A DNA stretch of 64,000 nucleotides from Tubiluchus corallicola. Its lineage: Eukaryota > Priapulida > Priapulimorpha > Priapulimorphida > Tubiluchidae. The position numbers and the translations under genes are program-made. The DNA is taken from assembly GCA_030141605.1 (NCBI GenBank), contig JAQGDQ010000277.1:242803-306802 (forward strand), read 5' to 3'. Position 1 is the first letter of the stretch; every line of letters starts with the position of its first letter. A model generated the notes under the pieces. It ran no database searches, was not told the origin of the DNA, and saw nothing but the letters and a program-made list of their open reading frames with translations. Below are positions 1 to 53,879 of the stretch, piece after piece.

Positions 1-818
1 GATCTTTTCAATAGCTGGGTTATCACTTAAGTCTAAGTTGGCTCTCACTAACGATGCACTGTGAGTAATGCTCAGTCTGGCAAGACTTTTGAGTTGTGAA
101 AATGCACGTGGATTAATGTTTGTCAAGTTGGAGTTACCCGAGAGAAAGAGAAATCTAACATCCCCAGAAATGTCACCTTCTCCCAAGAATTGAATTTTAG
201 TATTACTAATTGTTAAGCCTACCAAGTTTTTGCCTTCAAGAAACCGAGGAGGCAGGTGGGTACTTTCATAGTTATTAACAACAAGTACAGCAAGAGAATC
301 TGGTACATACTTGGATATGAATTGCAAAATCGATTCTGTGATTGTACCAGAGTTGGGTAAACCACAGGTTATCTTACATGGGCCAAACTGCTCATAATTA
401 CATTTGCTTAATGGGCCTAGAAATGGTCCACAGTACTGAGGCTTTATTTTTCCACTTCCAGTTAAACGCAATCCACATTCAGCATAACAATGGCTAAAGG
501 CATTCTGTAAATCACATTGTTCTGTCAAGTATTCACATGCTGGTTTTCTACTAGTTGTCGCATCCACAGAATCCGAAGAAACTACAGGCCTTGTTTCATT
601 GGCTCTTCTGGTTGAGTCAGAAATTACTCTTCTAGACTGAGAAGTCTGACTTGCAGATGTTGTTGTGGTTTCTGGTGTTATTTGATCGCAACCAAATTCC
701 CCCAATGTTATTTCGTTCACTCCATGTTTCCTAGGTGGCTGTACACAATCAATCTCAGAAACCATCCAGTTTCTAAACTTGGTCCATGCTAGATCACAAT
801 CACATATGAATGGATTAT
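1..818 (-). CDS. LRR gene exon 5 (3' end outside the window)
   Basis: The acceptor TTTTTACAG is at 819. The reading frame from DNPFICDCDLAW through the linker, N-cap (SGKIKPQYCG) and LRRs is open to base 1. The LRR half differs from exons 3 and 4 at many sites, while the LRRCT and linker are nearly identical to exon 4. Up to the window edge it lines up with exon 4 at an offset of about 3,150 bases. Confidence 0.8.
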
Positions 819-3800
819 CTGTAAAAACAAAACAACCACCAGTTTCTAAACTTGGTCAATACTAGATCATAATCACATATGAATGGAGTATCTGTAAAAA
901 CAAAACAACCATCAGTTTCTAAACTTGGTCCATGCTAGATCACAATCACATATGAATGGATTATCTGTAAAAACAAAACAACCATCAGTTTCTAAACTAG
1001 GTCAATACTAGATCATAATCACATATGCAAGGACTATATATGCTGAAACACAAAAACCTAGCCGTTTCCTAAGTTTTGCCCACACTAGATCACAATAGAA
1101 TGTAGATTGTGTGTAAAAAGGAAAACTTTTTCAAATTATATCTGCTAGAATAGGGCACGCAGTGTTTTGCATCAATTCAAGAAAAATAGATACGTGTTTT
1201 CTCTTTTACATTGGCCGCTGATAAAAGATTTATACCAGTTAATGTTTTGAAACTGTACAACACTTTCAGAATAACCTCAGCTTATTTATTGTCATTTTCA
1301 ATTGTATGTCTGTTGATTTTGCAATTATGACCTTTGACCAGTGGTCACAAGTCTTTATTTTCTACTAGTTTGCCCGCATGTCACAGGAGACGATTAATTG
1401 CAAAATGATCAAATTTCAAGAATGGAATTGCATTCCCAGTGTTAATAACCAAATAAAAATATCCGTTTTCAATTCAGAATACTATTAAAAACTTGCCTAT
1501 GGCTAGCTATTTGTTAATCACAAAAATGTGATTACCCATCGCAAAATACTACTTCTATTACTGGAACTCGCAAATCCAGAAATCTGACATTCGATCGCAG
1601 AACTTAAACAAGGCAGAAATGCATTGGTGTGTTTGGGTCGGGTTCGCCATCATCCAGACCCCGAATCTCGTTCCCGTACTTTTCTTAAACCCCGAACCCC
1701 GGTCCCAAATATTCAGTCCCATCCCGAACCCTGTTCCCGAATCTCTCGTCCCGTCCCGGCCCCGATCCCAAACCCCGAACCTTAAAAGTTTATAATATTT
1801 GAAAAAGCAACATTTACTTCAGGTTTTTGAGGTACGTAGCGAAAGATAAGCCGTTTGTCAAGTTTTCAACAGTTAAATTTCGTGATAACATATTTTATAC
1901 TGAGATTTTATTATCTACAGTTGCATCGCATGATTGTCAACTGCTGTTTAATAGAAAACGTCCTGTAAGTAGTTTAAAGTCAGCATGACCATCTTTTTAC
2001 AACTCATACATTCAGCCTTCTGTAATAGTGACAAAGTTGTTCTGGTGGTTATTTGCCAATAATGATGGAAAAATTTTGGGAAAAATATATAAAACAATGA
2101 CACCATCTTACGAAAAATGTTTTGTGAGATTTTCGGCTCGTTGCTACTAGTACCTTTCCTATCTGAAATTCACCCAAGAACCTAATGCGTTATTATTCTT
2201 TTTAATAAATACTTAAATTTTATAGCAACGAGATTACCATTACATTTGCTTTACATCCACTTAGCATATTGAAGCGTACAAACTGTGCAAGGTTTGAATA
2301 CGCAGAAATCAAAGGGAAAGAGTGAATAACTTATTGCCACGCCTTCACCGCCAATATGTGTTTTGGATGATGCCATGTTTGTTAACTATATTTTATATAT
2401 ATACACAGAATAAATAATAAATAAATTGCTTCTACTGGGCAGCAAACAACAATTGCTGTTCTATCATTCACAGAACAGCAGGGTATTTAATGCATTTACA
2501 CAGCGCACTCCGAGAAGCAGAAATGTGTGGGTGGAACCTAGAGTCTAGACTATGTTTCTTTTATTCAGGACTCTTGGGCGATCTGTGCATCTATAATTAA
2601 AGGCTGAGTGAACTAATTTTGCTGTAATTTTCTTATCTCCATTTATTGATAATTATGTACAAAGTTTCGGGATCGGGAACCCCAATCGCGAACCTTTGGT
2701 CCTGACCCGAACCGCATTCCCAATCACTTGATTTCGAACCACGAAAAATCCTGGCCTCTAACTCAATTCGCCTCCCGAATCCTGATCCCGAACCATTAAT
2801 CTCGACCCGAACCCCAAAGCCTTTAGTTATGCAGAACCGAATATAGATACACTGTTGGCTAGAATGAGAATGATTAGTTAGCACAGGTTAACTTAGGGTC
2901 TAAACAAAACTTCAATATAGAGAACTTTTAGTTTGTCTAGTATACAGTTAGCTACTGAGTATTAATAACAAGAGGGTCTCTATTTTAAATGTTCCACCTT
3001 CCTGTAGCAAGTGTATGTGACATTTTACTTTGCATGAGCTAGATTTAACAAATTTGCACCTACCTGTTAATGTCAGTGCTAATCTGCTTGGCGCCGTGTC
3101 TGGATGCAGAAGAGGCATTGTCATCCTCGCTATAATTGTGTGGCGAACCTTGATACTTTCAATAGCTGGGTTAGCACTTAAGTCTAGGTTGGCTCTCACT
3201 AATGATGCACTGTCAGTAATAATCAGTCTGGTAAGACTTTTAAGTTGCGAAAATGCAAGCGGATTAATGTTTATCAAATTGGAGTTACCAACGAGAAAGA
3301 GAAATTTAACGTCCCCGTAAATGTCATCTTGTCTCAAAAATTGAATTTTAGTATTACTGATTGTTAAGCCTATTACGTTTTTGCCTTCAAGAAACCGATG
3401 AGGCAGGTGGGTACTTTCGTAATTATTGATGGCAAGTACAGCGAGAGAGTCAGGCACATACTTGGATATGAATTGCAAAGTCGATTCTGTAATTGCGCCA
3501 GAATTGGGTAAACCACAGGTTATCTTACATGGGCCAAACTGCTCATAATTACAGTTGCTTGTAGGGCCTAGAAACGATCCGCAGTACCGAGGCGCTATTT
3601 CTCCACCCGCAGTTAAACGCAGTCCACATTCAGCATAACAATGGCTAAAGGCATTCTGTAAATCACATTGTTCTGTCAAGTGTTCACATGCTGGTTTTCC
3701 ACTTGTTGTCGCATCCACAGAATCCGAAGAAACTACAGGCCTTGTTTCATTGGCTCTTCTGGTTGAGTCAGAAATTACTCTTCTAGACTGAGAAGTCTGA

Positions 3801-6800
3801 CTTGCAGATGTTGTTGTGGTTTCTGGTGTTATTTGATCGCAACCAAATTCCCCCAATGTTATTTCGTTCACTCCATGTTTCCTAGGTGGCTGTGCACAAT
3901 CAATCTCAGAAACCATCCAGTTTCTAAACTTGGTCCATGCTAGATCACAATCACATATGAATGGATTATCTGTAAAAACAAAACAACCATCAGTTTCTAA
4001 ACTTGGTCAATACTAGATCATAATCACATATGAATGGAGTACTGTAAAAACAAAACAACCATCAGTTTCTAAACTTGGTCCATGCTAGATCACAATCACA
4101 TATGAATGGATTATCTGTAAAAACAAAACAACCATCAGTTTCTAAACTAGGTCAATACTAGATCATAATCACATATGCAAGGACTACATAAGCGGAAACA
4201 CAAAAACCTAGCCGTTTCCTAAGTTTTGCCCACACTAGATCACAATAGAATGTAGATTGTGTGTAAAAAGGAAAACTTTTTCAAATTATATCTGCTAGAA
4301 TAGGGCACGCAGTGTTTTGCATCAATTCAAGAAAAATAGATACGTGTTTTCTCTTTTACATTGGCCGCTGATAAAAGATTTATACCAGTTAATGTTTTGA
4401 AACTGTACAACACTTTCAGAATAACCTCAGCTTATTTATTGTCATTTTCAATTGTATGTCTGTTGATTTTGCAATTATGACCTTTGACCAGTGGTCACAA
4501 GTTCTTTATTTTCTACTAGTTTGCCCGCATGTCACAGGAGACGATTAATTGCAAAATGATCAAATTTCAAGAATGGAATTGCATTCCCAGTGTTAATAAC
4601 CAAATAAAAATATCCGTTTTCAATTCAGAATACTATTAAAAACTTGCCTATGGCTAGCTATTTGTTAATCACAAAAATGTGATTACCCATCGCAAAATAG
4701 TACTTCTATTACTGGAACTCGCAAATCCAGAAATCTGACATTCGATCGCAGAACTTAAACAAGGCAGAAATGCATTGGTGTGTTTGGGTCGGGTTCGCCA
4801 TCATTCAGACCCCGAATCTCGTTCCCGTACTTTTCTTAAACCCCGAACCCCGGTCCCAAATATTCAGTCCCATCCCGAACCCTGTTCCCGAATCTCTCGT
4901 CCCGTCCCGGCCCCGATCCCAAACCCCGAACCTTAAAAGTTTATAATATTTGAAAAAGCAACATTTACTTCAGGTTTTTGAGGTACGTAGCGAAAGATAA
5001 GCCGTTTGTCAAGTTTTCAACAGTTAAATTTCGTGATAACATATTTTATACTGAGATTTTATTATCTACAGTTGCATCGCATGATTGTCAACTGCTGTTT
5101 AATAGAAAACGTCCTGTAAGTAGTTTAAAGTCAGCATGACCATCTTTTTACAACTCATACATTCAGCCTTCTGTAATAGTGACAAAGTTGTTCTGGTGGT
5201 TATTTGCCAATAATGATGGAAAAATTTTGGGAAAAATATATAAAACAATGACACCATCTTACGAAAAATGTTTTGTGAGATTTTCGGCTCGTTGCTACTA
5301 GTACCTTTCCTATCTGAAATTCACCCAAGAACCTAATGCGTTATTATTCTTTTTAATAAATACTTAAATTTTATAGCAACGAGATTACCATTACATTTGC
5401 TTTACATCCACTTAGCATATTGAAGCGTACAAACTGTGCAAGGTTTGAATACGCAGAAATCAAAGGGAAAGAGTGAATAACTTATTGCCACGCCTTCACC
5501 GCCAATATGTGTTTTGGATGATGCCATGTTTGTTAACTATATTTTATATATATACACAGAATAAATAATAAATAAATTGCTTCTACTGGGCAGCAAACAA
5601 CAATTGCTGTTCTATCATTCACAGAACAGCAGGGTATTTAATGCATTTACACAGCGCACCCCGAGAAGCAGAAATGTGTGGGTGGAACCTAGAGTCTAGA
5701 CTATGTTTCTTTTATTCAGGACTCTAGGGCGATCTGTGCATCTATAATTAAAGGCTGAGTGAACTAATTTTGCTGTAATTTTCTTATCTCCATTTATTGA
5801 TAATTATGTACAAAGTTTCGGGATCGGGAACCCCAATCGCGAACCTTTGGTCCTGACCCGAACCGCATTCCCAATCACTTGATTTCGAACCACGAAAAAT
5901 CCTGGCCTCTAACTCAATTCGCCTCCCGAATCCTGATCCCGAACCATTAATCTCGACCCGAACCCCAAAGCCTTTAGTTATGCAGAACCGAATATAGATA
6001 CACTGTTGGCTAGAATGAGAATGATTAGTTAGCACAGGTTAACTTAGGATCTAAACAAAACTTCAAATAGAGAACTTTTAGTTTGTCTAGTATACAGTTA
6101 GCTACTGAGTATTAATAACAAGAGGGTCTCTATTTTAAATGTTCCACCTTTCTGTAGCAAGTGTATGTGACATTTTCCTTTGCATGAGCTAGATTTAACA
6201 AATTTGCACCTACCTGTTAATGTCAGTGCTAATCTGCTTGGCGCCGTGTCTGGATGCAGAAGAGGCATTGTCATCCTCGCTATCATTGTGTGGCGAATCT
6301 TGATACTTTCAATAGCTGGGTTAGCACTTAAGTCTAGGTTGGCTCTCACTAATGATGCACTGTCAGTAATAATCAGTCTGGTAAGACTTTTAAGTTGCGA
6401 AAATGCAAGCGGATTAATGTTTATCAAATTGGAGTTACCAACGAGAAAGAGAAATTTAACGTCCCCGTAAATGTCATCTTGTCTCAAAAATTGAATTTTA
6501 GTATTACTGATTGTTAAGCCTGTTACGTTTTTGCCTTCAAGAAACCGATGAGGCAGGTGGGTACTTTCGTAATTATTGATGGCAAGTACAGCGAGAGAGT
6601 CAGGCACATACTTGGATATGAATTGCAAAGTCGATTCTGTAATTGCGCCAGAATTGGGTAAACCACAGGTTATCTTACATGGGCCAAACTGCTCATAATT
6701 ACAGTTGCTTGTAGGGCCTAGAAACGATCCGCAGTACCGAGGCGCTATTTCTCCACCCGCAGTTAAACGCAGTCCACATTCAGCATAACAATGGCTAAAG

Positions 6801-9800
6801 GCATTCTGTAAATCACATTGTTCTGTCAAGTGTTCACATGCTGGTTTTCCACTTGTTGTCACACTTGTTGTCGCATCCAAAGTATCTGAAGAAGCTGCAG
6901 GCATTGTTTCATTCGATCTTGTGGTTGCGTCAGGAATTACTCTTCTTGTAGGCTCTGAAGTCTGACCTGTAAATGTTGTTATGGGTTCTGTTGCCATTTG
7001 TTCACAACTAAACTCCTCCAATGTTATTTCGTTCACTCCATGTTTCCTAGGTGGCTCTGCACAATCAATCTCAGAAACCGCCCAGTTTCTTGACTTTGTC
7101 CATTCCATATCACATTCACATATTAACGGATTATCTAAATAACAATGGAGATCACAATTTATTCAGCAGTAAAAAAACAAAAAAATTTTAAAATTGCAAT
7201 CGACTACAAAATTTCATATTAACTAAACACAAATGAAAACACCATGATCATTGCATACACATAAAAAGAAATTTTTTTCTATATTTATACAAGTGCAGTT
7301 TGAAGTGTTTTAGATTGCTGAGCTTTCTTCTTTGTTTTAGAATAAATTCATATTAATTAGAATACAGGTGTTCAACAATGCGGACTCCTAAATATTGTAA
7401 ATTGCAACTAAGCTGTGTTTAAACATAATGTTATTTGTTCCTTATAAAAAGTCCATCTAATGACATGCATGGCTGCCAGAACCAAGCAAATTAGTTTACA
7501 TTGCGTGAGGTAAGCATGCACATAGTGTGTTTAAAACATTTTTACAGATATTTGCAAAAAATCAACAACGCTAAAGCACAATCGTGATGATTAGTTTTGC
7601 TGATGGGAAATAATATGTTTATTGCAAAAACTTGATTTTCCAGTAATTTCAAAAAATTTAATAGCAACAAAAATGATTTTGATAAAGCTGTAGAGATTGT
7701 TAATCTTCTTTGGCAGAGTTTCCTTTTATTTCATCTGTACTTGCTTTTCATTAGATTCGTACATTCCTTTCAGGATTTTCCATTTTTGATATCGATCAAA
7801 GATTGAATCATCGTCACCAAAAATATGCAAAAATTGACTAGTGATGTTATACCTTGAAATCTAGTTTCATCTTTATCTCTAGTATGGAATTTGAATTGTC
7901 CAAATGGAAAATCTTGACAATATCAGCAGTAGGAGTGTCACACTGTTTTAGCTTGGAGAAATTGTAAAATATTTTTATATGCCTACCTGTTAATAATAGT
8001 TCAATTTCGTTTGGTGACGTGTCCAGATGTAAAAGTGGCATCATCATTTTCGATATATTTGTATGACGGATTGCAATCTTTTCAATAGCGGAATTATTAG
8101 TTAAATCCAAGTCTACTTTTATTAATGATGGACTGTTAGTAATGCTTAATCGTGTAAGACTCCCAAGTTGTGAAAATGCACGAGGATCAACGGACATCAA
8201 GTTAGAGTTCCCAACAAGAAAGAGGAGTTTAATACCACCGTAAATAGCATTTTCTTCTATATGTTCTATACGTCCATTAGTAATTGATAAACCGACTATG
8301 TTTTTGCCATCGAGAAATTGCAAAGGAAACCGTGTACTTTGGTAGTTTTCAATAGCAAACACAGCAAGAGAATCTGGCAGATACTTGCTCATGACTTCCA
8401 ATTTAGATTCAGTCAGCATGCTAGCATTAGAAGAACTGCATGTTATCGAACATGGACTAAATGGTTCATAATTACAGTCGTTCAAAGGCCCTAAAAATGG
8501 CCCACAATACTGGGGTTCTACTCTTCCACTTGCTGCTATATGTAAACCGCACTCAGCAAAGCACAAGGCAGAAGCGTCCTGTAATTCACACTGATTCGTT
8601 AAATGTTCACATGTCGGCTTCTGTATTGGCACGTCCTGTGCTGGACTCAATGATGTAGCAGCAACTGTTGTAATCATGACCTTAGAGGTCTCCGTTGTTG
8701 ACTGTGTGGTTTCCATCTCGCCAGGTTTGAAAAATGTTGCTGGCATTGCTGTTGTTTCTATGCCCGCCATTTGAACAAACTCTGCCGTTGTCAACATATC
8801 TGCAGCGTCTCTTGTTGCTGTCTCAGCAGATACAGATGCAGTAGTTGGTTCTGGTGCGAATTCTGTAAATGCTTCTGTCACATTTTTTACAGACGCTGTT
8901 GTCGTTGATATTGTAGTAGATTCCACTGTTGATGACTGCACAGATTCAAGTGTTACTTCTGGCATATTAGTTGTCGAGTTCATCATCGTGGGTATTGTTG
9001 TTTTCTCCGTCATTACAGTTGTGCTTTCTGTCGTCATCATAGCTGACATTGATGATGCAGGATCTATGGTTGGAATTTGAGTAATTGTCGAGTCCATTCT
9101 GGCTGTTGTCACAGTTGTGCTTTCTGGTGTCATGACAGACATCGGTGACTCCTTGTCTACCATGTCACCCATCGTTTCTCTGCAACCAAATTCTTCAAGT
9201 GTGATCTCGTTGATACCAGCTTGTCTCAGTGGTACCTGACAGTCAATTGTAGAACTTCTCCAGTTGACGGCTTTTGTCCATGATAATGAACAATTACAAA
9301 CCAATGGACTGTCTGGAAAATACAAACAATAATCTTACACAATTGCTTATAATAATTACGCAAACCAAAAAGTTCACACCAGATTTGTGCAGTTAAAAAA
9401 TGAAACAGCTTACAAGTAACAAATAATAATTTCCACCATTGATAAATCGGAGGATTGCTTTCAATATTTATAGGGTGTCCCATAATTTGAGCCAGTGTAC
9501 ACTCTGTTTTATAATCTTCTTTTCAAAATTTTCTCCTGTCTCGGCAAGTAGTTGTCTAGCATGAATAAGAAGGAGTCTTTAGCAATTTTTTATTTATATT
9601 TTTACTGGAATTCCGTTGCTAATCCGAAGACAGCAATGTTAGAAATGTTAGAAGCTTAAAATCTCAGCGTGGCATCTTTCGATCACGAATTCAGATAGTC
9701 TAGACCCAAATCATGAAAATGTGCTTCTATAAAATTCTATTCGAAAAAAGCTGTTGCTGGCTTGGAAAATTAACGGAAAACGGTCAAAAGCGCAAACAAC

Positions 9801-12623
9801 GAAAAGGCTGCAAAGTTTTTGCGCATGCAATGTAAATCAAAACAAGTTCCCAGAAAATTATGAAGCCATGATGACATCTGTTCCAGGGTCTTTGCAATCC
9901 ATTTCTGCTACTTTTGATACAAAAACGGTTGTGGTTTTCAAACTGGCCGCCACACAAAAAGAAATTATGTCGATCAGTTCTAGTACCAGTTTTACCTAAA
10001 GATTTATTATAAAAACAAAAGCAACTCACTTTATTTTTAATTCGACCTTTTTGAATCTAAATACTGCTAGACTAATAACTAATAATAAGAAATAAGCAAA
10101 AAAGAAAGTGACCTCGACGTATAGTCCAGCAGAATCGTGAAAAATTGCTCATGTCGTCTAAACGTTATGAAATTTAGCACAATGCTAAAACCCGTCGTTA
10201 TTAATTTTGGATAAGAAAATCCTCCAACATGGGCGCCATTGTCAACATGGCCAATAAGATGGCTGGTTAGCATATAAAGGTCATATCTTAACGATTAGAA
10301 CAGATAAAATGATGATTTGGTGTCTAAATATAGGTTCTAAGGGTCAAGCAGCTCATAACTAATGCTTAAAAACGCTTATGTGCTCTAACAGCTAAAATGC
10401 TGCTTTAAAAAAACTAGCAACAGCCTTCCATCTTCTAGGCCATTTTGAATGAGTTTTTTCGGCCTCATATCCAAAATTAATCACTTTGATGGGTTTTAGC
10501 TTTGTGCAAAGTTTTTTGGCCGTTCTACAAGAGACTATTACTTTAGGATCCAGGTCAATTTCATGGCGGTTGCCAGATTGTTATGGCACCTTGTGTTTAC
10601 AATACATTAGTAAGAACGCATGTTCTAAGGCAGATAAGATAATAATTTTAGTGTCTAGATATAGGGCTTTAAAAGTGAAAGCTACAGATTAGTGTCCATT
10701 GAGGCCGCAACTTTCATGATGGCCAATAAGATTCCTATCGCTAGCATCGAATAAATACGACACTACAGTTGTCAGAGCAGATAAGATGATTTTTTGGTGC
10801 ATAAATGTAGTTTTTCAAGGTCAAAGAATCCATATCTGGTGTTAGGGCAGTGATTAATACTTGGACAAACAGTACCTGCCTGATATACTATTCCTCTGGT
10901 GTGCCCCAACTATGAGGCATATGTTGGAAGAATTGTCACCAAAACACCTTTCTAGTGAACAAGCCTTTACATGCTTTCCAAACTGACATCAATGTGCTAG
11001 CTTTGTGATACAGGAGTACAACAAAAACTGGTCCTACCCTAAACCCTTGACCTTTAAAGCCTACATATAGATACTAATATCATAGTCCTATTTACCTTTG
11101 GTCAGGTAATATAGCTAATATATTACCCACCCGGCTGCAAGTATTTTGGCAGCCATTTTGAAATCTAACTGCAGTAATGTCATAGGTGTTTCTGGGCATC
11201 AGAAATTGATTCCCTGCCAGTGAAAACCTAACATACATTTTGACACCGAAGTTGTCATCTTAACTGTGTCAAACGTTAGGATATGGCTTTCAAAACTAGC
11301 AATTACAGGCATGGATCTTGTCAACCAGTTTGAAAATGGCACCAATATTGGATTTGGATGATGTTCGGTTGGCCTCATATCCAAAATTAATCACCCTGAT
11401 TGGTTTTAACTTTGTGCAAAGTTTTGTAACCTAGCGAAAATAACAGATTTTTCACCATTCTACAAGACACTTACGTCGGGATCCCGTCGGCCATTTTGTT
11501 TTTTATTTATTGGGCTGTTTGAATCGCTTTGTATTTTTTGAGACTAGTAGCAGTTTTCTGTATTCAAGAAGATCCAGTTGTTCTTGTTTGTATAATGAAT
11601 CTTATAATGAAACTGTTAAGCAAATGCATGATCGGCATTATTTCGTTATTGCGCGGCAGGCATTTTGAATACGGTAGTTATTTTTGAAATGAAAATGACA
11701 GAAATGGGGTCCTCAGATCCAACTACCTGAGGATCGCATCTAGCCAATTAAACAAACAAACAAATTGATTTTGTAAATGCAATTCACAAACAGCATCGAC
11801 AACCTGTTTAAACGTTTAATTAAGTGTTTTCTGGTATTTTTAATGCAATTCTTAAAGTGATTATAGTTTTTATAAGTGATTTGATAGTATCTAGCTATAA
11901 GCACGATGAGGATAAATGCTGTGAGGCCATTCAGCTTCTCATATTTTTGTTACCTGTTATTTCCAAAATTATTCCTTCTGGTGGTGTTTCTGAAGACAAA
12001 ATTGGCATCCTCATGGTCTCTATCCCTGTTGTATGAAAATCAATTCTCTCTATCCGATCATTGTTGGTCAAATCAAGATCAGCAGATGTCAAAGCAGTGC
12101 ATTCGCTAAATGAGAGGCTAATGACATCTGTTAATCTCGAAAAAGCCAGTGGATGGACCGTGGTCAACCGGTTGTTAGACATAATCGACACTTCTGATAT
12201 GTTGCCCGCTAAGACGTTGGCTCCCAGTTCTTCGAGTTTGGACGAAGATATGGTCAATGTGCCAACACTTCTTCCTTGCAGAAACCCCCGTGGCAACTGG
12301 GAATCTTGGTAGTTGTAGACACTTAGCTGATGTGTGGAATCTGGTAGAGCATTTGTCAAGATGGCCAGATCAATGGCGAATACTTCTGCATCCTGTAATC
12401 TACCACAGATAACGATGCACTGTCCAAAGATGTTGTAGCTGCAATCTGGTAGAAAAGCACCGCACATTGAATCTATGTCATTATCGGATATCTCAATGCA
12501 GCGAATATAGCACAGTGTTGAGTGGTGGTAGTCGCAGTCCCTGGATAAGTGTGTACAGATAGGTTTCTGAGACTTGGAAACCATCATCAGAATCAGCACA
12601 ATCCACAAACTCCTTAAAAACAT
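1..12623 (-). CDS. Secreted multi-module leucine-rich-repeat protein (partial, runs off the left edge)
   Basis: Five exons join with all introns in phase 1: 12623-11954, 9312-7987, 7134-6214, 3969-3064 and 818-<1. They give about 1,547 codons with no stop. The protein starts with a signal peptide (MFLRSLWIVLILMMVSKSQ). It then repeats one module: a Cys-rich N-cap (C-x-H-L ... YCG-x-FL ... C-x-Y ... C-x-I-x-C), about four degenerate LRRs (PDS-x-x-x-L-x-x-x-NY, LP-x-x-FL-x-G-x-x-V-x-x-L-x-I, AFS-x-L) and an LRRCT cap (DNPFICDCDLAW ... IDC). Modules are separated by Thr/Ser-rich, probably O-glycosylated linkers. Four complete modules and part of a fifth are visible. It is presumably extracellular. 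The module loosely recalls LRR proteins annotated in invertebrates as oplophorus-luciferin monooxygenase non-catalytic subunit-like; that is recollection and does not establish function. An alternative is several separate genes, but only the first unit has a signal peptide, and the LRRCT caps are complete only after splicing across units. Confidence 0.8.
819..1040 (-). repeat. Tandem array of copied splice-acceptor/exon-start units (about 73 bp) upstream of exon 5
   Basis: The first roughly 50 bases of exon 5 with its polypyrimidine-AG acceptor recur about three more times in the intron just 5' of the exon. The shared motif agtttctaaact starts near 768 (real exon), 841, 913 and 987. The copy near 913-985 is almost identical to the real acceptor and exon start. 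Reading on from the copies meets in-frame stops, so using them would truncate the protein. Confidence 0.85.
1628..2825. mobile_element. Possible DNA-transposon derivative with GC-rich CCCGAACC arrays at both ends (copy 1)
   Basis: In very AT-rich intron DNA, 1635-1790 and 2660-2820 are packed with variants of CCCGAACC/CCCGATCC. The outermost bases face each other: tttgggtcgggttcg at the left and cgacccgaaccccaaa at the right. Subterminal arrays inside inverted ends are typical of some hAT-like elements. No transposase or clear target-site duplication was found. A simple minisatellite is the alternative. Confidence 0.4.
3064..3969 (-). CDS. LRR gene exon 4: chimeric module exon
   Basis: The acceptor TTTTTACAG is at 3970 and the exon opens DNPFICDCDLAWTKF. 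Its 5' half (LRRCT and the SASQTSQSRR linker) matches exon 5 almost perfectly. Its 3' half (N-cap and LRRs, such as GGEIAPRYCG) matches exon 3. The switch is near 3695-3715. Frame and phase (1-1) are intact, so it reads as a working hybrid made by unequal crossing-over. Confidence 0.82.
3970..4190 (-). repeat. Second copy of the splice-acceptor array, upstream of exon 4
   Basis: This is the same array of about 73-bp units as upstream of exon 5, carried along by the 3.15-kb duplication. It has a few differences, including a one-base deletion in the first decoy unit (ggagtactg against ggagtatctg). Confidence 0.85.
4778..5976. mobile_element. Possible DNA-transposon derivative with CCCGAACC arrays (copy 2)
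   Basis: This is the duplicated copy of the element at 1628-2825, inside the intron between exons 3 and 4. It was carried by the 3.15-kb duplication and did not insert independently. Confidence 0.4.
6214..7134 (-). CDS. LRR gene exon 3: LRRCT of module 2, short linker, module 3 LRRs
   Basis: The acceptor ATTTAG is at 7135 and the first residues are DNPLICECDMEW. The linker contains TEPITTFTGQTSEPTRR and SVTTSGKPACEHL. The 3' half (about 6214-6850) is almost identical to exon 4, whereas the 5' half (about 6860-7134) is clearly diverged from it. Donor GTAGGT, phase 1. Confidence 0.82.
7135..7986. other. LRR gene intron 2, no further feature seen
   Basis: About 850 bases of AT-rich intron between exons 2 and 3. 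It lacks the acceptor array and the CCCGAACC element found in the two duplicated introns. Confidence 0.7.
7987..9312 (-). CDS. LRR gene exon 2: LRRCT of module 1, long Thr/Ser linker, N-cap and LRRs of module 2
   Basis: The acceptor TTTTCCAG is at 9313 and the codon is completed as G|AC, giving DSPLVCNCSLSW, an LRRCT start. After the LRRCT cysteine (EEFGC) comes a linker of nearly 200 residues with many STT/TTES/PESTTV motifs, far longer than the roughly 50-residue linkers of later exons. Then come CEHLTNQCELQ and the LRR block. The exon ends in phase 1 at a GTAGGC donor. At 1,326 bases it is the largest exon of the gene seen here. Confidence 0.82.
9313..11953. other. LRR gene intron 1 with degenerate internal repeats
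   Basis: The intron contains diverged repeated blocks. A motif like cagataagatgattttttg followed by a short run and aaggtcaa recurs near 10300, 10635 and 10777. A block beginning ggcctcatatccaaaattaa recurs near 10461 and 11371. These look like remnants of a dispersed repeat family. No coding capacity was recognised. Confidence 0.5.
11954..12623 (-). CDS. LRR gene exon 1: signal peptide, Cys-rich N-cap and LRRs of module 1
   Basis: The ATG at 12623 is preferred over the in-frame ATG at 12662, because a TATA-like element at about 12679-12682 would place transcription start near 12650. The signal peptide is followed by ICTHLSRDCDYHHSTLC and the LRR block. The exon ends ...EIT-G| at a GTAACA donor in phase 1. 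It is the most diverged of the five N-caps, as expected for the founding module. It carries no Thr-rich linker. Confidence 0.82.
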
Positions 12624-19192: not shown

Positions 19193-35630
<16,438 letters not shown>

Positions 35631-36539
35631 CTGTGCAACTTTGAAGTAACAACAAACTTTACTGAGATGTGACAAATTTCCCAAATCAAAGCAGTCAGGC
35701 TTTTTTCAGAAATAATAATCACTAAGCATCCAGTTATTTTCACATTTCTTCTCACAGTTTGTTGTTTGGTAGCCTAACTTTCCTGTAACTGTTCCAAGTT
35801 CAGTAGCACTTCTTACTGTTTTCTTTACAATGCATACATGTGATACTGTTGAATTCTATGAAGGAACCTTGCCGAGTGTTAACTTTCACAGTTCGAGTAT
35901 ATTATAAAATAATTTAAAGTAGTGTCATCAAGTTATGTTGTACTCTAAACAAAAAAGTCGATTGCCGAGACACGGTGACAAAATTTGTCTGACAACCATC
36001 GTTCTTTACGCAGAAAAATCAATTCTGTGAAACAGAACAGTGCTACAGTAGTTCTAACAACAGATGCCTAAAACAAAACAAAAAAAATCATCATTACTGA
36101 TTACAGAAAAAACATTTTTAACTAGAAAAAAAATTAGTCAGTATTATACTAAATAGTTTTCTGTTTAATTATTTTAAAACTTTTTTTAAGACTAGAAATA
36201 TTTTAATATTTATTATAAGACTTTTTTAAAACTTAGTGGCTGCTGACTTCCATAGAGGATCCGTGTTCAGAAGAAATTTTGCTCCAACAACAAATGATCA
36301 CATGTTCTCCTGTAATATCGGTGAGCTCCGACAATGAGTGACTGAGTCCCTGAGGACAACACAAGCACTGCCGCCACAGATGGTTCTCATAGTAGGCTAC
36401 CATCGGGAAGATATTGCTGCACATTGGAATTTTTAAACATTCTATGAAAATTTAAATAAACTTACATCATTTATCCAAATGAATTGCGACAAACTGTGTA
36501 CTTTTACAGTTTCCAAACATTCCAACACCAAAGATAATA

Positions 36540-37291
36540 TGCTTAGCTTAAAATATTAGTTTCTATCTGTATCCAGAGATCTTTGCACTGCATGTCGGAT
36601 TGCAAAGCAAGAGATGAATTAGCATTTTGGATAGAGTATTTTGTGATTTTATCATTATTTAGCTGATTAGATACATACAGTCCAACCCCACCTGCTCTTG
36701 TATTAGAATCAGTAGGTAAAAAAGAGTAATTGGGTATATTACATAAAAAATATTTTTATTGTTAACTCGAGTCTTCGACACCGCTATTATGTCGGGTGGC
36801 CTCTTAAAATGCTGAAGCACATCTGTTATGTCATGATAGTGTTTGTGAAGGCTATTGGGATTAATATGTATGAAGCTAAAATCCTTATCATTGTGGTGCA
36901 AAAAGGCCGATGACAGTAGCAAGGTGAGTTTGTAGTATTTGCTATCATACAGAGTGTTATGATTAATGTCGGGATCTTTATCATCATCATCATTAAACGA
37001 GGACAAGCTAGCTGTACAATTGAGTGATAGTAACTGTTCAATTTCACTATTGCAATAATTAAAATGGACAAAATCATGAAAGTCATCATCGTCTGCCATC
37101 TGAAGTGGTAATATCGAATTAATGCAAGGCAAGCAAAAGTATGTATCACTAGAATTAGCTAAATTTTGAAACTGTTGTAATGATAGGTATGTGCACTTCA
37201 GATGGCACCAATTCTAACAGTTGTCACAATAAAAGGCATTCTGATTTGACCTACAGACTTTAGAGCAAACTGAACATGGATAAGATGCCAT
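36540..37291 (-). mobile_element. CR1-like LINE 5' fragment: PHD-like finger and endonuclease start
   Basis: On the minus strand, MASYPCSVCSKVC ... FYCDNC-stop-NWCHLKC is a decayed PHD-type finger. It is followed by a linker (DFHDFVHFNYCNSEIEQLLS) and an AP-endonuclease-like start (FIHINPNSLHKHYHDITDVL ... PPDIIAVSKTRV). After frame breaks, CKDLWIQIE follows. This order is typical of CR1-clade LINE ORFs with N-terminal zinc fingers. It is broken and truncated. Confidence 0.65.
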
Positions 37292-38284: not shown

Positions 38285-38949
38285 TACACAAATCCTACCA
38301 CCTGTGCTGCACTCGCTCAAGTTCCAAAAGAGTTATAGCTTTTGTATGGATCTCAAACTGAAGAAAATATACGTATTCTAATTTTGGCCTTAATATAGAC
38401 TTGCAAGCAGAGTCTTTGATAGCTTTTTGGCAATGCTTGAGATTTCTGTGAAGAATTCCCATAACGTATTCATGACTTTGGTTGCTACTTTTTAATTCGA
38501 ATTTTTTAATGATTTACCATCTAAAATGCACAGTGGTTTGTAAACATTGGAATAAACGTAAGGAAAACGTATATCGCACAGTCAACACTAAAATGCTATA
38601 GCCAATCTGGCTTCTTTTTATGTAATGTGTCTAAGTCCTTTTGTAAAGTATGGCAGTCATTATAAAATTTGGTAGGATGATACATAACACAGTCGTAAAT
38701 AAAACCCATGCTGCAGATAAAAATTTGCAGCAAGATCATTAAATTTTGTGAATATAAAAATGATACTAGTCCCAATACTGTCCCTTGCAGAGTTCCAGAA
38801 ATTAGATTACCAGGTTCAGGACCGTCCCGAACAATAGTCCACGTCATTCTTCTGCCACCAGAAGTCTTTCCTGAGCACTGAGCAACAGTATCGAAGGTTC
38901 TGCTAACAATAGCTGTTCTTATGATGTGTCGAAATATATAAGCATACAT
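38285..38949 (-). mobile_element. LINE reverse-transcriptase fragment (degenerate)
   Basis: Minus strand: LISGTLQGTVLGLVSFL (RT motif like SGVPQGSVLGPLLF), a ruined ADD box (FIYDCVMYHPT), DCHTLQKDLDTLHKK, then in another frame MGILHRNLKHCQKAIKDSAC, SILRPKLEYV and ITLLELERVQHRW. This is a clear non-LTR RT and tail with the catalytic Asp-Asp lost. It lies on the wrong side to belong to the same copy as 36540-37291. Confidence 0.75.
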
Positions 38950-40820
38950 ATCGGAATATACCAGGTCAGCTGAACAAAGAAGTTAGTATCTACCTTGCTC
39001 CATCCAACTCTAGCCAGCTTCTAATTATTTTAGACGACTGACTTGACTAATGACTAGGTGACTTTTGCCTTTTCTGTTTGCCCAGTTTCACTTATCACCA
39101 TTCGTACATTTTCTTTCTTTGTAATGGAGATAAATGCAATTAATTATTATGAAATACTGATAATTTAGAAACAAGAAGATTGTCGGTAGACAAGAAGGAG
39201 GTTAGCAAAACTCCTTTAGGACCGCGCCGTTCAAAGTAGGTATCTTAAGATCTATGATTTTTTTGCTGCGGTATGAACACAGACATAATTAAATGACTAC
39301 AAATTTGGTACAGTTCTATTCAGGAGGATCTCATGCTGCTATACAATCAAACTTTTTTAAAACATTTATGATTTAACTGAAGAAAATTAAGAAAAACACA
39401 CTATTTACAGGAACTTCAACTTAGCCTGTTGAGTAGCTTAGTCTGATATATACTTGCGTGATCGTACACACTATTTTATATTGATCGCCTGCTTGCTGCA
39501 ACCCAAGAGATTCGTCTCCTGTACAGAGTTCCAGGAAAACCAACCGATCAGTCAAATAGAAATTAATGGTCGTTTTATCTTTTAACAGGAATTTCTTCTT
39601 AAAAATACAGTAGACTTGTAGGGAAAGTGTACCAGAGTGTTGTGTCTGGACAGCTGAAATTTTCAGCACTAGCCCATTTCACACAAGTGATACTGTACAT
39701 TGTTAGAGCGCAAACATTGCAGTTGCTGAAAGCTTTTTTCATTTTTTTTCGTCAAAATGATTTTTAATTTGTCTAAGGTAAGCAAATGCACTTCATGTAT
39801 AAATAATTGCCAGAAGTAGAAACCTACAAAATCATCAAAAAATATAACGTAATTGCTGCTTACAGACAGACAGAAGAAATAGAAACTGTACAGTACGTCA
39901 CAAATTGTGACGAATGTCTGGGCATTATTATTGTTGTCGTCGTCGTCGTCGTCGTCCTTCTTCTTCTTCTTCTTCTTCTTCTTGTTCTTTTTGTTGTTCT
40001 TGTTCTTCTTTTTATTATTGCTATTGCTATAAAATTTGTATTGTAATTTTTTAAAACAATTTGCAGATCAGTACGTCAGTCGACCAAACTTACAGGCGTG
40101 TGAATTTGAAAACAACGTTCAGCCCGGCTATATTTATAGTTATTGCTAAGCAAAAGTAATGGTTATTACAATGTCACTGTTACACTTTTTAACCGAGGCA
40201 AGTATTTCCAATATGACCTTATCATTAATCACTGCTATATTGGGGACACTCAGAACACAATATAGGTGTGTGCTAAACCATACAACTTTTCACTGCAAAG
40301 AAAGTTAATTTGCTTGACAGTCACTAAAAGCTTTTGACTAAGGCATGATTAATTATCATTAGCCGTCTATAGGGTGACGCGAGAGAATGTCTATTTCTTT
40401 TATTGTATTAGGCGTGACTTACCTTTCTTTAGTAGAGCAGAGTTTTGCAAGTTTAAAGGGACATATGAACAGAAGGTAACCTAGGTTATGAGTTAACGAA
40501 CTGAAGATATTTAGCCATATACAACCTATACTGCGGTTATTCTTGTTTCTAGCACCGTTTATCAGCTGCAGCGAGAAATAATTCTTGAAAAACTCACCGT
40601 AGTTAATGCATTTTAATTTAAGTTAAATTATCAAAGTATAGGCGTTTTTCGTGAATAAAATTAATTTCTATACAATTTTTGCTGTTTTTCACCTTCTTAT
40701 AACGCTTTTCAGTATACAGTGGTGAAATATAATAGGCTTTGAATACACAAAAATTGCGCGTATCATTATTTAGCGTTTTTCGTGAGAATAAGATTTTATA
40801 ATTTTACTAAAGCCGACAAA
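38950..40820. other. Intergenic region with a short triplet tract
   Basis: AT-rich intergenic DNA between the divergent USP and ZP-like genes. It includes GTC/TTC triplet repeats at about 39934-39990. No further gene recognised. Confidence 0.5.
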
Positions 40821-45209
<4,389 letters not shown>

Positions 45210-48438: not shown

Positions 48439-51400
48439 TTAGACTCCTTCCCATGGTCCTGGAAAAAAGATATTTTTTAGAAAACTTTGATTAATTAACC
48501 TACTTGAATTATCACAATTTTAAATCCACGTATGGTGATGGTGTGCCATAATAACTATTGTTTATTATTGCTTGCTATCTCTTAATTTTTTCATCGTGTG
48601 TTTAGGACTATATGTCTAGCCAGGTGTATTTTTCTCTTTTACTTAAAAAATGAAATAAAGGTGGCAATAAAACTAGTCTGAGCATATAAAGTGGTGCCAT
48701 TTGCAGGCGTAAGTGGCAATCAAAAGCAATTCAGTATAATTTTATGGAAGATCGTGGGAAGTATGAAATAATCCTACCCTATCAAATTTCAATTAATAAT
48801 AATGATTTGTGATGCTATTCATTGAAATTAATAAATATATGGTTTTACCTGTATTGGAAAAAAAAACAAAAAAGGTTTTAAATGTCTCAAAAAAAGATAA
48901 ATTTTCTGGAATGAAGACAATGTTTTTTTTACCTTTTTCGGAAAGATAAATGGAGTAATTATTTTATCTCATTTGGACAAATTATTGGGTCGGATGGTAA
49001 TGAGCTTACCTGTCGTGAAAAGACGGAAGCGATTTTACTTGTCCTGGAAGGATGGCATGATATAACCTGTACGTGTAAGGTGTTAAAATTTTTTACCTGT
49101 ACTGGAAATAGAGACTTGAGCTGATGCCTCAGCAATGCCAAGTTCGTTACTGGCATGACACGTGTATACTCCTTCATCTTCCTGACGAAGACCTTGAATT
49201 TGGACCCATGAAGTAATCTCATAACTCTCAGGTCCACCTCGGGTTTGAATAGCAACATGATCGTCATCCTCTGTTGTAAATCAGATGTATGCTAATAAGG
49301 TAATTATTAGCACACCACGTATTTACATGCATATGCAGCACTTATTTCATTTACTTTTAACAGAATATGGAGAATAAAAAATATACCAAATGTCTTAAAA
49401 TTAGCAGTTTCATTTTATAGTCAACTAGAAAGCTTAAATGTATTACCAGCTGACACAAAAGAGCACATGTTCTATCAGAAAATAGTATTTTAAGGTTGTA
49501 GCAATGTAGGAATGAAGAATAAATTTGACAAAAACAAATGGGGAAAAGGAAACGTTTTAGCACCGTACTTGGCAAGTAGACAGTTTCTCCATCACTTCCA
49601 ATGAATGTCCATTCAAATACCGGAATTGGATATCCCATTCCTTCGCATGCCAATGCAACGTCATTTCCCAAAGATTCTGTTACATCGTCTGGTGGTGAAG
49701 CTATCCATGGCGCTAGGTGGAGAAGACGAAAATTTGTGAAGCATAGAGTTAAAATAAAAAAAATGTGCGAAACAAGTTTGCAAACTAAAAACGCACTTAT
49801 GCGAAGTGTTTAACAGGAAAATTGAAAATGCAAGACATGCTTGAAAGATGAAAGAATATCAAAACATCAGAAATATGTATAAAAATGTTTCAAGAAAAAG
49901 TCCCCACTGACGCAGGTACGCCCACAGGTCGGTACAGGTGTAAATTACCTCCTCGGTGTTTCCTATATAGTTTTCAGCAAAGTTGAGATTTTTTCATAAG
50001 AAATATAATACATTTAAGAAAGACTGTTACATTTATATATAAATAACAAAATAATAATAAAACCGCTTTGGCGAGGTGTCTTTCATTGTTCAATAATACC
50101 AACAGTGTAATTTTACGTACGTTGATATGTTTTATTATAAACACTGGAATCAAAAATGAAACATGAACATTGAAAGACAGTTGCAATACAACTGTTTATT
50201 GTTGTCAGCATTTTCCTTTTTTGTTAGGCTTGTTTGCCATTATGAAAAACACGTTTTGTAAACATAATTAGAAAGAATATAAACATAATATTATTGCATG
50301 TATTGACATGTTTTTCCAAACTTTTGCACTTTGAAATTTTTACTATACGTAGTTTGATATGCCATAGATTTCACGCCATAAATGTTAGCACAGACTATAT
50401 TTACTGCATATGCAAGGCATTTTGCGTTCTAACCCATGCTATGCGCTCATAGTACTAGTCGTCCGCAAGTTACTGTTGCTTGTGCTGCAATTTGTAGGGC
50501 GTTTCTTTGGAACGACGTAACCAAAGATGCTGAGCTCATGTAAGCAGACGCCTCCATTTTCGCATCTGCTGACATGTGTGGATGATGGGAATGTACAGCA
50601 TCAGCAACAAGCTACAGCAGGCTGATGTGTTTGAAACAAGGTCAGTGCTCGATGATGGTTTCATTGCATTCGTTTTCCGCTCCGGCAGCAATGGCAGCTC
50701 GGTGAATTACACATTTAGATTAGCAACTCCAAAACATTCGTTCAAAATTTTGAATTGATAGACCTATTTGCCGGACAAAATGCACGTTATCCTAACCTGA
50801 TTTGCAGGCTCCACGACGAGCAATTTTGATTTTTTGTCTGGTCGCGTAAGCTTCTTCCATCAAGTGGCACAGATTCTTGTAGGTCTTTCCGTTTTCCCCA
50901 CATAAAACTTCTGTATACCTGCAAGAGGGGTATTTAAAGTTAGATAATTTTAACTCGTCGCATTCATGAATTAAATCACGTGTAATAAAAATAAAAATTG
51001 TTGGACATTGCAGTTAGACATTGGGCAAATTGTGTGAACGCTCGTTTAAATATATTGTGGGTCTTTTTGTGAGGCTTTTTGTGAGTCAACCTTAAGTTAC
51101 TTAGCCTTCAAATCACCTAAACCTTCACGCTTTAGTTACTTTTCTTTTTACACTTACTTTTTGAGCAATTGTTCTCCACATCGAAACATCATTTCGCTAT
51201 TACTGTCGTCGTCGACGGTGTCATCATCACCATCATCATCGTCGTTGCCGTCGTTATCTTCATCGCTATCATCATCATTATCGTCGTCATCATCATCATC
51301 ATCATCATCATATCATCAACACCATCACGGTTTGTGATAGCTTTGATCACAGTATTAAGGGTGTTACTATCACATTATAACTATCTTTGCCATTGAAGAC

Positions 51401-51559
51401 TGCTATGGATGTCACAAAATCACTATTATCAGTGATATTATTATAATCATCACCATTCATTTTTGTTATCATTGTCATATCTTACCGTCATTGTCGTTAT
51501 TGCCAGTGCCATCAACGGCAATGACAACAGTAACAACTACTACATCAAAAGCTATACAG

Positions 51560-51652
<93 letters not shown>

Positions 51653-53833
51653 GCTTTTTACTACTAGCTAGTGGTTGTTGTTCTGTCTTCATCAAAAATA
51701 TGGCAGTTACATTCTCATTTCTGACAGAGCTAATACAGTCATTTTCTATGACCATTTTGCAGCTACATGCCAAGAAATCAGCATGTTGAAGGGATTAAAT
51801 ATTTTTTCCATAAATAAAGAAAGACCGAAATTGAAACATGGAAACGATTGTAAATTCAATGCAGAACACATTCCAAAAATGTACTGGATGGAGGGTGTAT
51901 AATGTGTTGGTTTGACAGTTCAACTTAGTCGATCCTTATCTTCAGCTGCATCTGTGTGTTTATCAGTCTGGCTGTTCTCGCTGTTCACGCTATCAATTCT
52001 GGACCGCTGTTCTAATTTCAGTCAAACTGGCACCTATCTTACATACCTTGCAGGAAGCGTATGCCCGAGTTCTAGCTATGCAGTAAAAGTGGGTTGTTAT
52101 GGTAACCATGCTTGCCTGGTACTTGCAAATACTCCTAAAATTGATACTTTCCGCATTCAAAATGTATCTACTCCAAAACTGCTAAGGTATTGAAGACGAA
52201 ACTGCATGTCCGTCTGTCTCTCAGAGCCGTCGAACCAGTAACAGCCAGACGGCTTTCTGTTACCACATCTAATAACACTGTGATGTACACATCATACTCG
52301 TAGGCTCAAAAACCTTATTACTTTATTACTTTTCTGTTATATTTTTATTACTATGTTGTTTTGTAGCAGTAATTCCTAGTCACATTTTAGTACATTCTAG
52401 TTGGTAGTTGGGTGGTTGAGCTTAATCAATTGTTTTAGCTTGAAGAAGCCACATACAAACAATTGGACATGTAAAATGTAACGAAAAGGTCCTACCCTAT
52501 CACAGTATGTAAAATTGCTGTTAAGTCAACTGCACAGAAAAGCTTGTTTTCACCTGAATGTGTCGATTCCTAAATTTCAGAATTGCTTGGCTGCAGTCAC
52601 ATGCACTTGGAAATTTTACATATCCTTCTGGTATTGATCTGGCAAGATGGACAGACGTCTCCCGACATACTGTAGTTGCTTAAGGTAGGACAAGGGAAAC
52701 TCCACGCGGATTGGCATGATATGCTTTGTATGCCAGGCGGTTTGTTGGAAGCAGGACGTAGTGATGTTCTATGGTTGAGGCGCCCAAAATAATTAAGTTA
52801 ATATGAATAATTGGCCAGTATCTCTTGAGTAATCGAACGGTATCGGTTGTTGTGTACAATTCACGTATTATTATTATTTGCTAGCTTTTGTTTTTATTTC
52901 TTTCCTTTATATGAAATATTTAGAAGCGTTGTGCAATCATTACACGTTTACACGTTATTACGTATGGAATTGATTATGGATATTAGACAGGTGTGAACGT
53001 GCGTTATCTTTTTTTGAGAAATAGCGAAATTAGTCCCGACAGATATTTCTAAATACTACTCACACTGCCACAAATTTGTGTTGGAAAATTTTAGTGATTT
53101 ATTGACTTCTAGTTTAGTGTTTCTTGATTATTTTTGTGGTTGTGTAGCTTACTGTGTAGGTGTCATGGCTTCTTTATCAACGTACTATAGTCGAATAACC
53201 AAAATGCGTTAATTAGTTCTTTGCGTTTTCATAGAAGACTTTATTACAAGCGGTTTTTGCAGAATTCCATTCTGTGCCAAACTTCTCTGGGTGTCAAGGC
53301 ACATCCTGTATAGTTGGCTTGTTGTGAACCGGACTGGCTTGCGATTTTTCTGGGTAATTTGATAAGCATTGTTGTTTGTCATGCTGTTCTTGCTGTTAAA
53401 CTGTCTTCCTTTTGGATTGTAATTACTGTATGCGGTTATTTGGAGACGAAAGAGTGTGAAGATTAATTCTTAATGATGACATTCCTTAACAATAGGGAAA
53501 ATTATGATTTTATAAAAATAATTATCACAACTAATGTGATGCTCTAAAAGTAAATTGCAATTTAACATACTTGCACTGACACACAGCTTGTTGAGGTACA
53601 TCGTCTGGTGTATCATTGCGCAAGAGACATTCAAGGTCGTCTCCGCATTTAAGGTCATCGCTGTTGCATAGTTGACCTTCTTTCATACCGCACTGCCAAC
53701 AGCATCCACATTTATCTTTGACCACGCCAGCCACACATTCGCGCGGGTTATTACAACGTTTTGGGTCACATTGTCCACACTCTTCTGCGAATGCCACCCC
53801 CAGGAGAAATAACAATACCAATAATGTCTTCAT
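48439..53833 (-). CDS. Secreted IGFBP-related protein with IB, Kazal and Ig domains (IGFBP7/IGFBPL1/KAZALD1 type)
   Basis: Exons 53833-53571, 50918-50797, 49712-49569, 49270-49097 and 48458-48439 join to 723 bases (240 aa) with matching phases (2, 1, 1, 1). A signal peptide (MKTLLVLLFLLGVAFA) precedes an IGFBP N-terminal domain with the CGCC core (CGQCDPKRC ... DKCGCCWQCG ... GQLCN). A Kazal-like segment (VLCGENGKTYKNLCHL ... ARRGAC) follows, then an I-set Ig domain split over two exons (VALACEGMGYPIPVFEW ... DEGVYTCHASNELGIAEA). The tail is GPWEGV. Relatives bind growth factors or extracellular matrix; the ligand here is unknown. The final exon is only 20 bases and rests on one acceptor and frame match. 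An AG acceptor directly before the start codon implies a non-coding first exon upstream. Confidence 0.88.
48845..49110 (-). repeat. Degenerate array of splice-donor-like units after the Ig exon
   Basis: The exon-4 end TTTCCAGTACAGGTAAAA is echoed downstream on the minus strand as TTTTCACGACAGGTAAGC, TTTCCGAAAAAGGTAAAA and TTTCCAATACAGGTAAAA. The spacings are about 79-86 bases (donors near 49097, 49011, 48932 and 48848). The flanks are weakly similar, so this may be an old tandem duplication. Confidence 0.45.
50919..53570. other. Large first coding intron of the IGFBP-related gene
   Basis: Holds (CAT)n-type triplets at about 51180-51320 and the (CTA)n tract at 51560-51651. No other exon or element recognised. 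Confidence 0.6.
51560..51651. repeat. (CTA)n microsatellite
   Basis: About 30 CTA triplets. The poly-Thr and poly-Val open frames over it are artefacts. Confidence 0.97.
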
Positions 53834-53879
53834 ATCTGCAAATGTAAAGCTAAGTACACAGCATAAAAACAATGTACAG

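What the first reader, a model, noticed from the sequence alone, without database searches (positions are those of the whole stretch)
1..12623. One-exon-per-module LRR gene with module boundaries offset from exon boundaries
Each internal exon runs from the middle of one LRR domain's end (LRRCT) through a mucin-like linker to the next domain's last LRR, with phase-1 introns on both sides. Any exon can therefore be gained or lost without breaking frame or the LRR fold. Seen: five exons, open frames, matching phases. Inferred: a single transcript and an expandable extracellular array.
Basis: partly seen in the sequence, partly recalled or inferred. Interest (0 to 1): 0.7.

Follow-up and report, generated by a model that had tools for sequence, protein, structure and literature searches.

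The report
LRR gene growing by exon duplication
An animal gene for what looks like a secreted or cell-surface leucine-rich-repeat protein carries a row of similar exons, and the sequence indicates that its newest module arose when two of those exons recombined with each other: a clear but ordinary example of how repeat proteins grow.

Summary
Seen boundaries are AG/GT and phase 1, and all eight include/skip combinations of exons 2-4 stay open. Each internal exon is a rotated module: LRRCT-like cap, Ser/Thr-rich linker, eight-cysteine N-cap, LRRs. Joining exon 2's end to exon 3's start aligns across the junction to SLITRK1 (E 9.3e-7); unspliced read-through does not list that chain at E<=1.

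Exon 4 is a clean chimera: 5' part like exon 5, 3' part plus intron like exon 3, one switch within 14 nt (103 of 105 informative sites fit). The simplest cause is one in-register unequal crossover between two exons, adding 3.15 kb, with 0.48% substitution since. Intron-phase symmetry was not needed.

Exons 4 and 5 follow a 73-bp minisatellite of splice acceptor plus exon start; upstream copies lead to early stops.

Such growth is already proposed for Tetrahymena LRR genes (PMC6564038). Transcript, 3' end, species and assembly correctness remain untested.

The parts
11954..12623 (-). Exon 1 from the ATG: signal-peptide-like stretch (by eye), eight-Cys N-cap and LRRs, ending phase 1 at donor CAG|GTAAC
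   Evidence: 34-35% aa identity of the N-cap+LRR part to the same part of exons 2-5
7987..9312 (-). Exon 2: LRRCT-like cap, ~187-aa Ser/Thr-rich linker (35% S/T), N-cap, LRRs; phase 1-1, 1326 nt
6214..7134 (-). Exon 3: LRRCT-like cap, ~52-aa linker (38% S/T), N-cap, LRRs; phase 1-1, 921 nt
   Evidence: AlphaFold model with a confident repeat solenoid from residue 98 on
3064..3969 (-). Exon 4, chimeric: 5' part like exon 5, 3' part like exon 3; phase 1-1, 906 nt
   Evidence: 103 of 105 informative sites fit one switch; 0 of 10,000 permutations reach it
3704..3718 (-). Crossover interval in exon 4, at the linker end just before the N-cap
   Evidence: bounded by the last exon-5-like site (3718) and the first exon-3-like site (3704)
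1..818 (-). Exon 5, incomplete: runs off the window within the LRRs
   Evidence: open frame to window base 1
3970..6213 (-). Intron 3, one copy of the duplicated intron
   Evidence: 11 mismatches in 2243 aligned bases and 3 gap columns against intron 4
819..3063 (-). Intron 4, the other copy
3911..4177 (-). 73-bp minisatellite (3.7 copies) of splice acceptor plus exon start before exon 4; upstream acceptor copies lead to first exonic bases 4041 and 4114
760..1027 (-). Same minisatellite before exon 5; upstream acceptor copies lead to 891 and 964, and a degenerate one to 1042

Best explanation
This is the 5' part of one animal gene for a secreted or surface protein made of repeated LRR domains joined by Ser/Thr-rich linkers. 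Each intron lies between a domain's LRRs and its LRRCT-like cap, so exons are rotated modules, all phase 1-1. The array grew stepwise (exon 1 most divergent, then 2, then 3 and 5). Most recently, an in-register unequal crossover between exons 3 and 5, at the linker-to-N-cap boundary, inserted 3.15 kb and created the chimeric exon 4. Shown: exon structure, open frames, phases, the mosaic of exon 4 and its switch point, intron near-identity. Inferred: splicing into one transcript, protein location, unequal crossover as the route, and that the copy is real rather than an assembly product.
For: Open frames and phases. Coding-type substitution in the N-cap+LRR part: dN/dS 0.21 and 0.30. Joining exon 2's end to exon 3's start brings SLITRK1 (4rca_B) to E 9.3e-7, aligned over residues 99-250 across the junction at 211; that chain is unlisted at E<=1 for exon 2's end alone, for the unspliced read-through of nearly equal length, and for the cap alone (one hit, Slit2, E 0.89). 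Mosaic: left of the switch 39 of 40 sites are exon-5-like, right of it 64 of 65 are exon-3-like, 0 of 10,000 permutations as extreme. Introns 3 and 4 are 99.4% identical, while the 4 other intron pairs compared show no match.
Against: No transcript data. Pfam's LRRCT and LRRNT models gave no match at E<=10 on 3 joined modules and the exon-5 part, so these caps rest on cysteine pattern and PDB alignment. Only one junction was tested against PDB. Of the 34 PDB sequences listed for exon 2's end alone, 12 score higher after joining, 18 lower (by up to 4.6 bits, 7wrq_A) and 4 drop off the list. In the exon-3 model the cap and linker (residues 1-97) have pLDDT below 50; the exon-1 model is poor (mean 40). 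The cap+linker part shows no clear constraint (dN/dS 0.94 for exons 3/5). The 3' end, any membrane anchor and the species are unknown, and assembly error is not excluded.
Confidence: 0.75

Rival explanations
1. Exon 4 and the second intron copy are an assembly artefact: two alleles, or a mis-joined walk through the similar exons 3 and 5, were laid in tandem.
For: 15 substitutions in 3149 aligned bases (0.48%) could be ordinary allelic difference; no reads could be checked.
Against: The junction is in register at homologous positions of two paralogous exons and keeps the frame; a blunt misjoin would do so by chance in roughly 14/3150 cases (my estimate). A homology-led misassembly is not excluded by this.
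Confidence: 0.15
2. The phase-1 exons are spliced alternatively (skipped or mutually exclusive), so the gene makes proteins with one to several LRR domains rather than one fixed long array. This is compatible with the main reading of how the array grew.
For: All 8 include/skip combinations of exons 2-4 stay in frame; any upstream LRR part can be capped by any downstream cap.
Against: Frame compatibility follows automatically from duplication; no signs of regulated choice were searched for.
Confidence: 0.2
3. Exon 4 became mosaic by gene conversion from exons 3 and 5 rather than by one unequal crossover.
For: Conversion also yields mosaics between paralogues.
Against: One switch point, continuous with a full near-identical intron copy on the expected side, and equal spacing (3150 and 3151 bp) between homologous points are explained by a single tandem duplication.
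Confidence: 0.07
4. The exons belong to separate tandem genes.
For: Tandem LRR gene clusters are common (general knowledge).
Against: In the open frames of exons 2-5 no ATG precedes the cap, and each starts with a cap lacking its own LRRs.
Confidence: 0.03

Closest known systems
Tetrahymena 90-bp-exon LRR genes (PMC6564038; abstract and 'find' passages seen)
   Same: LRR genes with tandem arrays of equal-phase exons, proposed by the authors to gain and lose repeats by unequal crossing over between exons of the same gene.
   Different: There the unit is a 90-bp exon with phase-2 introns in ciliates; here the unit is a whole capped LRR domain plus linker, phase 1, in an animal.
Slit-type proteins with several LRRNT-LRR-LRRCT domains in series (domain description seen in PMC10199209 passages; Slit2 chains in PDB lists)
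   Same: Several capped LRR domains in tandem in one secreted protein.
   Different: Here Ser/Thr-rich linkers separate the domains, the N-cap has eight aligned cysteines, and one exon carries a whole rotated module.
SLITRK, LGI1, LRFN5, reticulon-4-receptor extracellular LRR domains
   Same: LRRs followed by a C-terminal cap; detectable sequence similarity.
   Different: Weak similarity only; same domain class, orthology not shown.
Phase 1-1 symmetrical extracellular exons and tandem exon duplication in animals (recalled from general knowledge)
   Same: Symmetrical exons that can be duplicated in frame.
   Different: Here the recorded switch lies inside an exon, not in introns.

Membership tests
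Extracellular capped LRR protein | Leucine-rich repeats | tested here: met
   LRR_8 above its curated cutoff in the exon-5 frame (E 2.7e-7) and below cutoff in the other 4 of 5 exon frames; regular strand spacing and block-mean pLDDT 67-92 from residue 101 in the exon-3 model
Extracellular capped LRR protein | C-terminal cysteine cap (LRRCT) | tested here: inconclusive
   C-x-C...C...C pattern in exons 2-5 and PDB alignments reaching into the cap for the one joined pair tested, but no Pfam LRRCT match at E<=10
Extracellular capped LRR protein | N-terminal cysteine cap (LRRNT) | tested here: inconclusive
   eight cysteines aligned in all 5 exons; no Pfam LRRNT match at E<=10
Extracellular capped LRR protein | Signal peptide | tested here: inconclusive
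   hydrophobic stretch after the ATG of exon 1 read by eye; no predictor was used
Tandem exon duplication | Adjacent homologous exons of compatible phase | tested here: met
Tandem exon duplication | Duplicates used in the transcript | not testable with these tools
   no RNA data
Slit family | Four LRR domains followed by EGF and laminin-G-like domains (as described in PMC10199209) | not testable with these tools
   window ends inside exon 5

The most novel reading that the evidence does not exclude
The 73-bp minisatellite of splice acceptors before exons 4 and 5 works as a decoy switch: choosing an upstream copy leads to a stop after 9-25 codons, so the number of copies would tune how often the transcript is completed, alongside module number set by exon crossover.
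Probability: 0.06. Interest if true: 0.55.

Novelty: new member of a known kind. Interest (0 to 1): 0.28.

Why it matters
If the assembly is right, the locus catches tandem exon duplication soon after the event, with the crossover mapped to 14 nucleotides. It indicates that the newest module of an animal repeat protein came from recombination inside exons, so symmetrical intron phases need not be the cause of expansion. It also predicts copy-number variation among individuals. The kind of process is well known, so the interest is as a clean worked example.

Tried and rejected
Relatives were sought with the 5-exon alignment in IMG/VR viral contigs (69 pattern matches, 0 confirmed) and in GTDB prokaryote genome contigs (27 pattern matches, 0 confirmed). 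No collection of animal genomes was on hand, so orthologues and species could not be found. Rfam at gathering score and ARAGORN on the window gave 0 matches.

Separate genes were rejected because exons 2-5 lack their own starts in the open frames. Phase symmetry as the driver of the last duplication was rejected because the switch is exonic. Homology between introns was sought in 5 of the 6 possible pairs (I1/I4 was not run): only I3/I4 matched; upstream sequence against intron 1 also gave 0. The single-sequence AlphaFold model of exon 1 was too poor to use.

Paper searches: 0 papers; 1, wheat phasing; 23, of which 20 were listed; it gave the Tetrahymena paper; 2; it gave the amphioxus paper; 3; 153, of which 10 were listed, mostly on plant resistance genes; 3; 3. 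No listed title or abstract start described this gene; no claim of absence from print is made beyond these listings. PMC6564038 and PMC10199209 were seen as 'find' passages only.

The control supports the junction. I lowered the main confidence from 0.78 to 0.75 because the assembly rival at 0.15 and the conversion rival at 0.07 leave little room for more.
Full report
What is there. The first 12.6 kb of the window, read on the minus strand, hold five long open stretches (495, 354, 352, 285 and 248 aa from stop to stop). In 200 first-order Markov simulations of the region the longest frame never exceeded 201 aa. The exon edges are AG acceptors and GT donors: 12623-11954 (from the ATG), 9312-7987, 7134-6214, 3969-3064 and 818 to the window edge. 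The three internal exons are 1326, 921 and 906 nt, all phase 1-1. The joined frame runs 1547 codons without a stop, and each of the 8 include/skip combinations of exons 2-4 stays open. The window edge cuts exon 5, so the gene's 3' end is unknown.

What a module is. Exons 2-5 each begin with D-N/S-P-x-x-C-x-C...C...C, an LRRCT-like cap. A Ser/Thr-rich linker follows (187, 52 and 47 aa in exons 2, 3 and 4 as I delimited them; 35-43% S/T), then an eight-cysteine N-cap shared by all five exons, then LRRs. Exon 1 has the ATG, a hydrophobic signal-like stretch (judged by eye), the N-cap and LRRs. Pfam finds LRR_8 above its cutoff in 1 of 5 exon frames (exon 5) and below cutoff in the other 4. LRRCT and LRRNT models do not match at E<=10 in three joined modules or the exon-5 part. 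An AlphaFold model of exon 3, from a five-row alignment, has mean pLDDT 66.7: a confident solenoid from residue 98 on, while the cap and linker at its start (residues 1-97) are below 50. That is what one expects if the cap belongs to the previous exon's LRRs, though shallow alignment depth would also do it.

Test of one junction. Exon 2's N-cap+LRR part alone does not list SLITRK1 chain 4rca_B at E<=1, and exon 3's first 45 residues alone give one hit, Slit2, at E 0.89. Joined as splicing would join them, 4rca_B matches at E 9.3e-7 over residues 99-250, across the junction at residue 211; SLITRK2 (4y61_B) goes from 13.0 to 30.1 bits and reticulon-4 receptor (1ozn_A) from 18.1 to 25.3. As a control, the unspliced read-through of nearly the same length (257 aa against 258) lists neither 4rca_B nor 4y61_B at E<=1 and gives 1ozn_A 16.7 bits; another SLITRK1 chain, 4rcw_A, is listed there at 19.0 bits, against 24.3 when joined. 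Against this: of the 34 sequences listed for exon 2's end alone, 12 rise on joining, 18 fall (by up to 4.6 bits, 7wrq_A) and 4 leave the list (my comparison). The other junctions were not tested this way.

How the array grew. In the N-cap+LRR part, exon 1 is 34-35% identical to the others. Exon 2 is 58-59% identical to exons 3-5 (dS 1.2-1.4, dN/dS 0.21-0.22). Exons 3 and 5 are 84% identical (dS 0.29, dN/dS 0.30). Exons 3 and 4 differ by 3 nonsynonymous and 0 synonymous changes in 211 codons. In the cap+linker part the pairing is different: exon 4 is 98% identical to exon 5 and 68% to exon 3, and dN/dS of exons 3/5 is 0.94, so this part shows no clear constraint (all). Of 105 informative sites in the three-way alignment, 39 of 40 on the left are exon-5-like and 64 of 65 on the right are exon-3-like. 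The two exceptions read as private later changes in exon 5 and exon 3. No permutation of 10,000 matched the split. The switch lies between 3718 and 3704, at the end of the linker. Over the duplicated unit there are 1 substitution in 265 bases (left part, exons 4/5), 3 in 641 (right part, exons 3/4) and 11 in 2243 (introns, plus 3 gap columns): 15 in 3149, or 0.48%. The 4 other intron pairs compared show no match.

One event explains all of this. Exon 5's linker recombined in register with exon 3's, adding one copy of [3' part of exon 3, intron 3, 5' part of exon 5]. Spacing of homologous points is 3150 and 3151 bp. If so, the crossover was homologous and exonic, and frame was kept regardless of intron phase; the common phase then follows from common descent of the exons. 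An assembly artefact at this similarity cannot be excluded without reads.

A splice-acceptor minisatellite. Upstream of exons 4 and 5, but not reported by the repeat finder before exon 3, lies a 73-bp repeat (3.7 copies each). Its unit is the last ~21 nt of the intron plus the first ~52 nt of the exon. The acceptor string TTTTGTTTTTACAG occurs 6 times on the minus strand of the window, 3 at each of these two exons. Older, degenerate units lie further upstream. Of the 4 sites examined at each exon, only the one at the exon itself opens the frame; the other three (six in all) reach a stop after 9-25 codons, and one of these six, before exon 4, does not end in AG. A yUnAy branch-point-like motif 21 nt upstream is present at 5 of the 6 TTTTGTTTTTACAG acceptors, and missing at exon 5's own. 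This is a simple pattern match, not evidence of use. The array seems to predate the crossover, since both copies of the unit carry it. It most likely arose by slippage and is tolerated; a regulatory role is speculation.

What is known. Growth of LRR genes by unequal crossing over between exons of equal phase is proposed for Tetrahymena (PMC6564038, passages), and serial capped LRR domains are known from Slit (PMC10199209, passages). Phase 1-1 exons of extracellular modules and tandem exon duplication are textbook matters (recalled). The locus is therefore a new member of a known kind. Its value is the freshness of the event and the mapped switch point.

Limits. The host was not identified; gene content (UCH and IGFBP domains above cutoff, zf-UBP and Ig domains just or well below it), long introns and the LRR type point to an animal. 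No animal genome collection, reads or transcripts were available. The own-genome search and the fold search did not complete.

Noticed in passing
window 760-1111 and 3911-4260 (minus strand): 73-bp minisatellite made of the 3' splice site plus exon start, in alternating unit types; the unit junction creates a branch-point-like motif, and upstream copies lead to early stops.
   Followed up: partly
window 25311-35705 (minus strand): One UCH match above cutoff (25311-25571), a second (30633-30902) and a zf-UBP match (35397-35705) just below; probably one ubiquitin-specific protease gene, USP20/33-like by eye.
   Followed up: partly
window 49357-53908 (minus strand): IGFBP domain above cutoff (53531-53908) and an Ig domain below cutoff (49357-49809), possibly one IGFBP7-like gene.
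   Followed up: partly
window 44961-45209 (plus strand): EB-module match, 21.6 bits against a cutoff of 24.3.
   Followed up: no
window 36659-37213 and 38596-38982 (minus strand): Two frames that look by eye like remnants of a non-LTR retroelement; neither gave a Pfam match at E<=0.1.
   Followed up: partly
window 28377-28478, 42344-42474, 51560-51652: Long perfect microsatellites (GA)51, (AAT)43.7 and (CTA)31.
   Followed up: no
window 1691-1772 and 4842-4923: 32-bp TTCGGG-rich repeat in both copies of the duplicated intron.
   Followed up: no
window 10461-10515 and 11371-11425: 55-bp direct repeat pair (93% identical) within intron 1.
   Followed up: no
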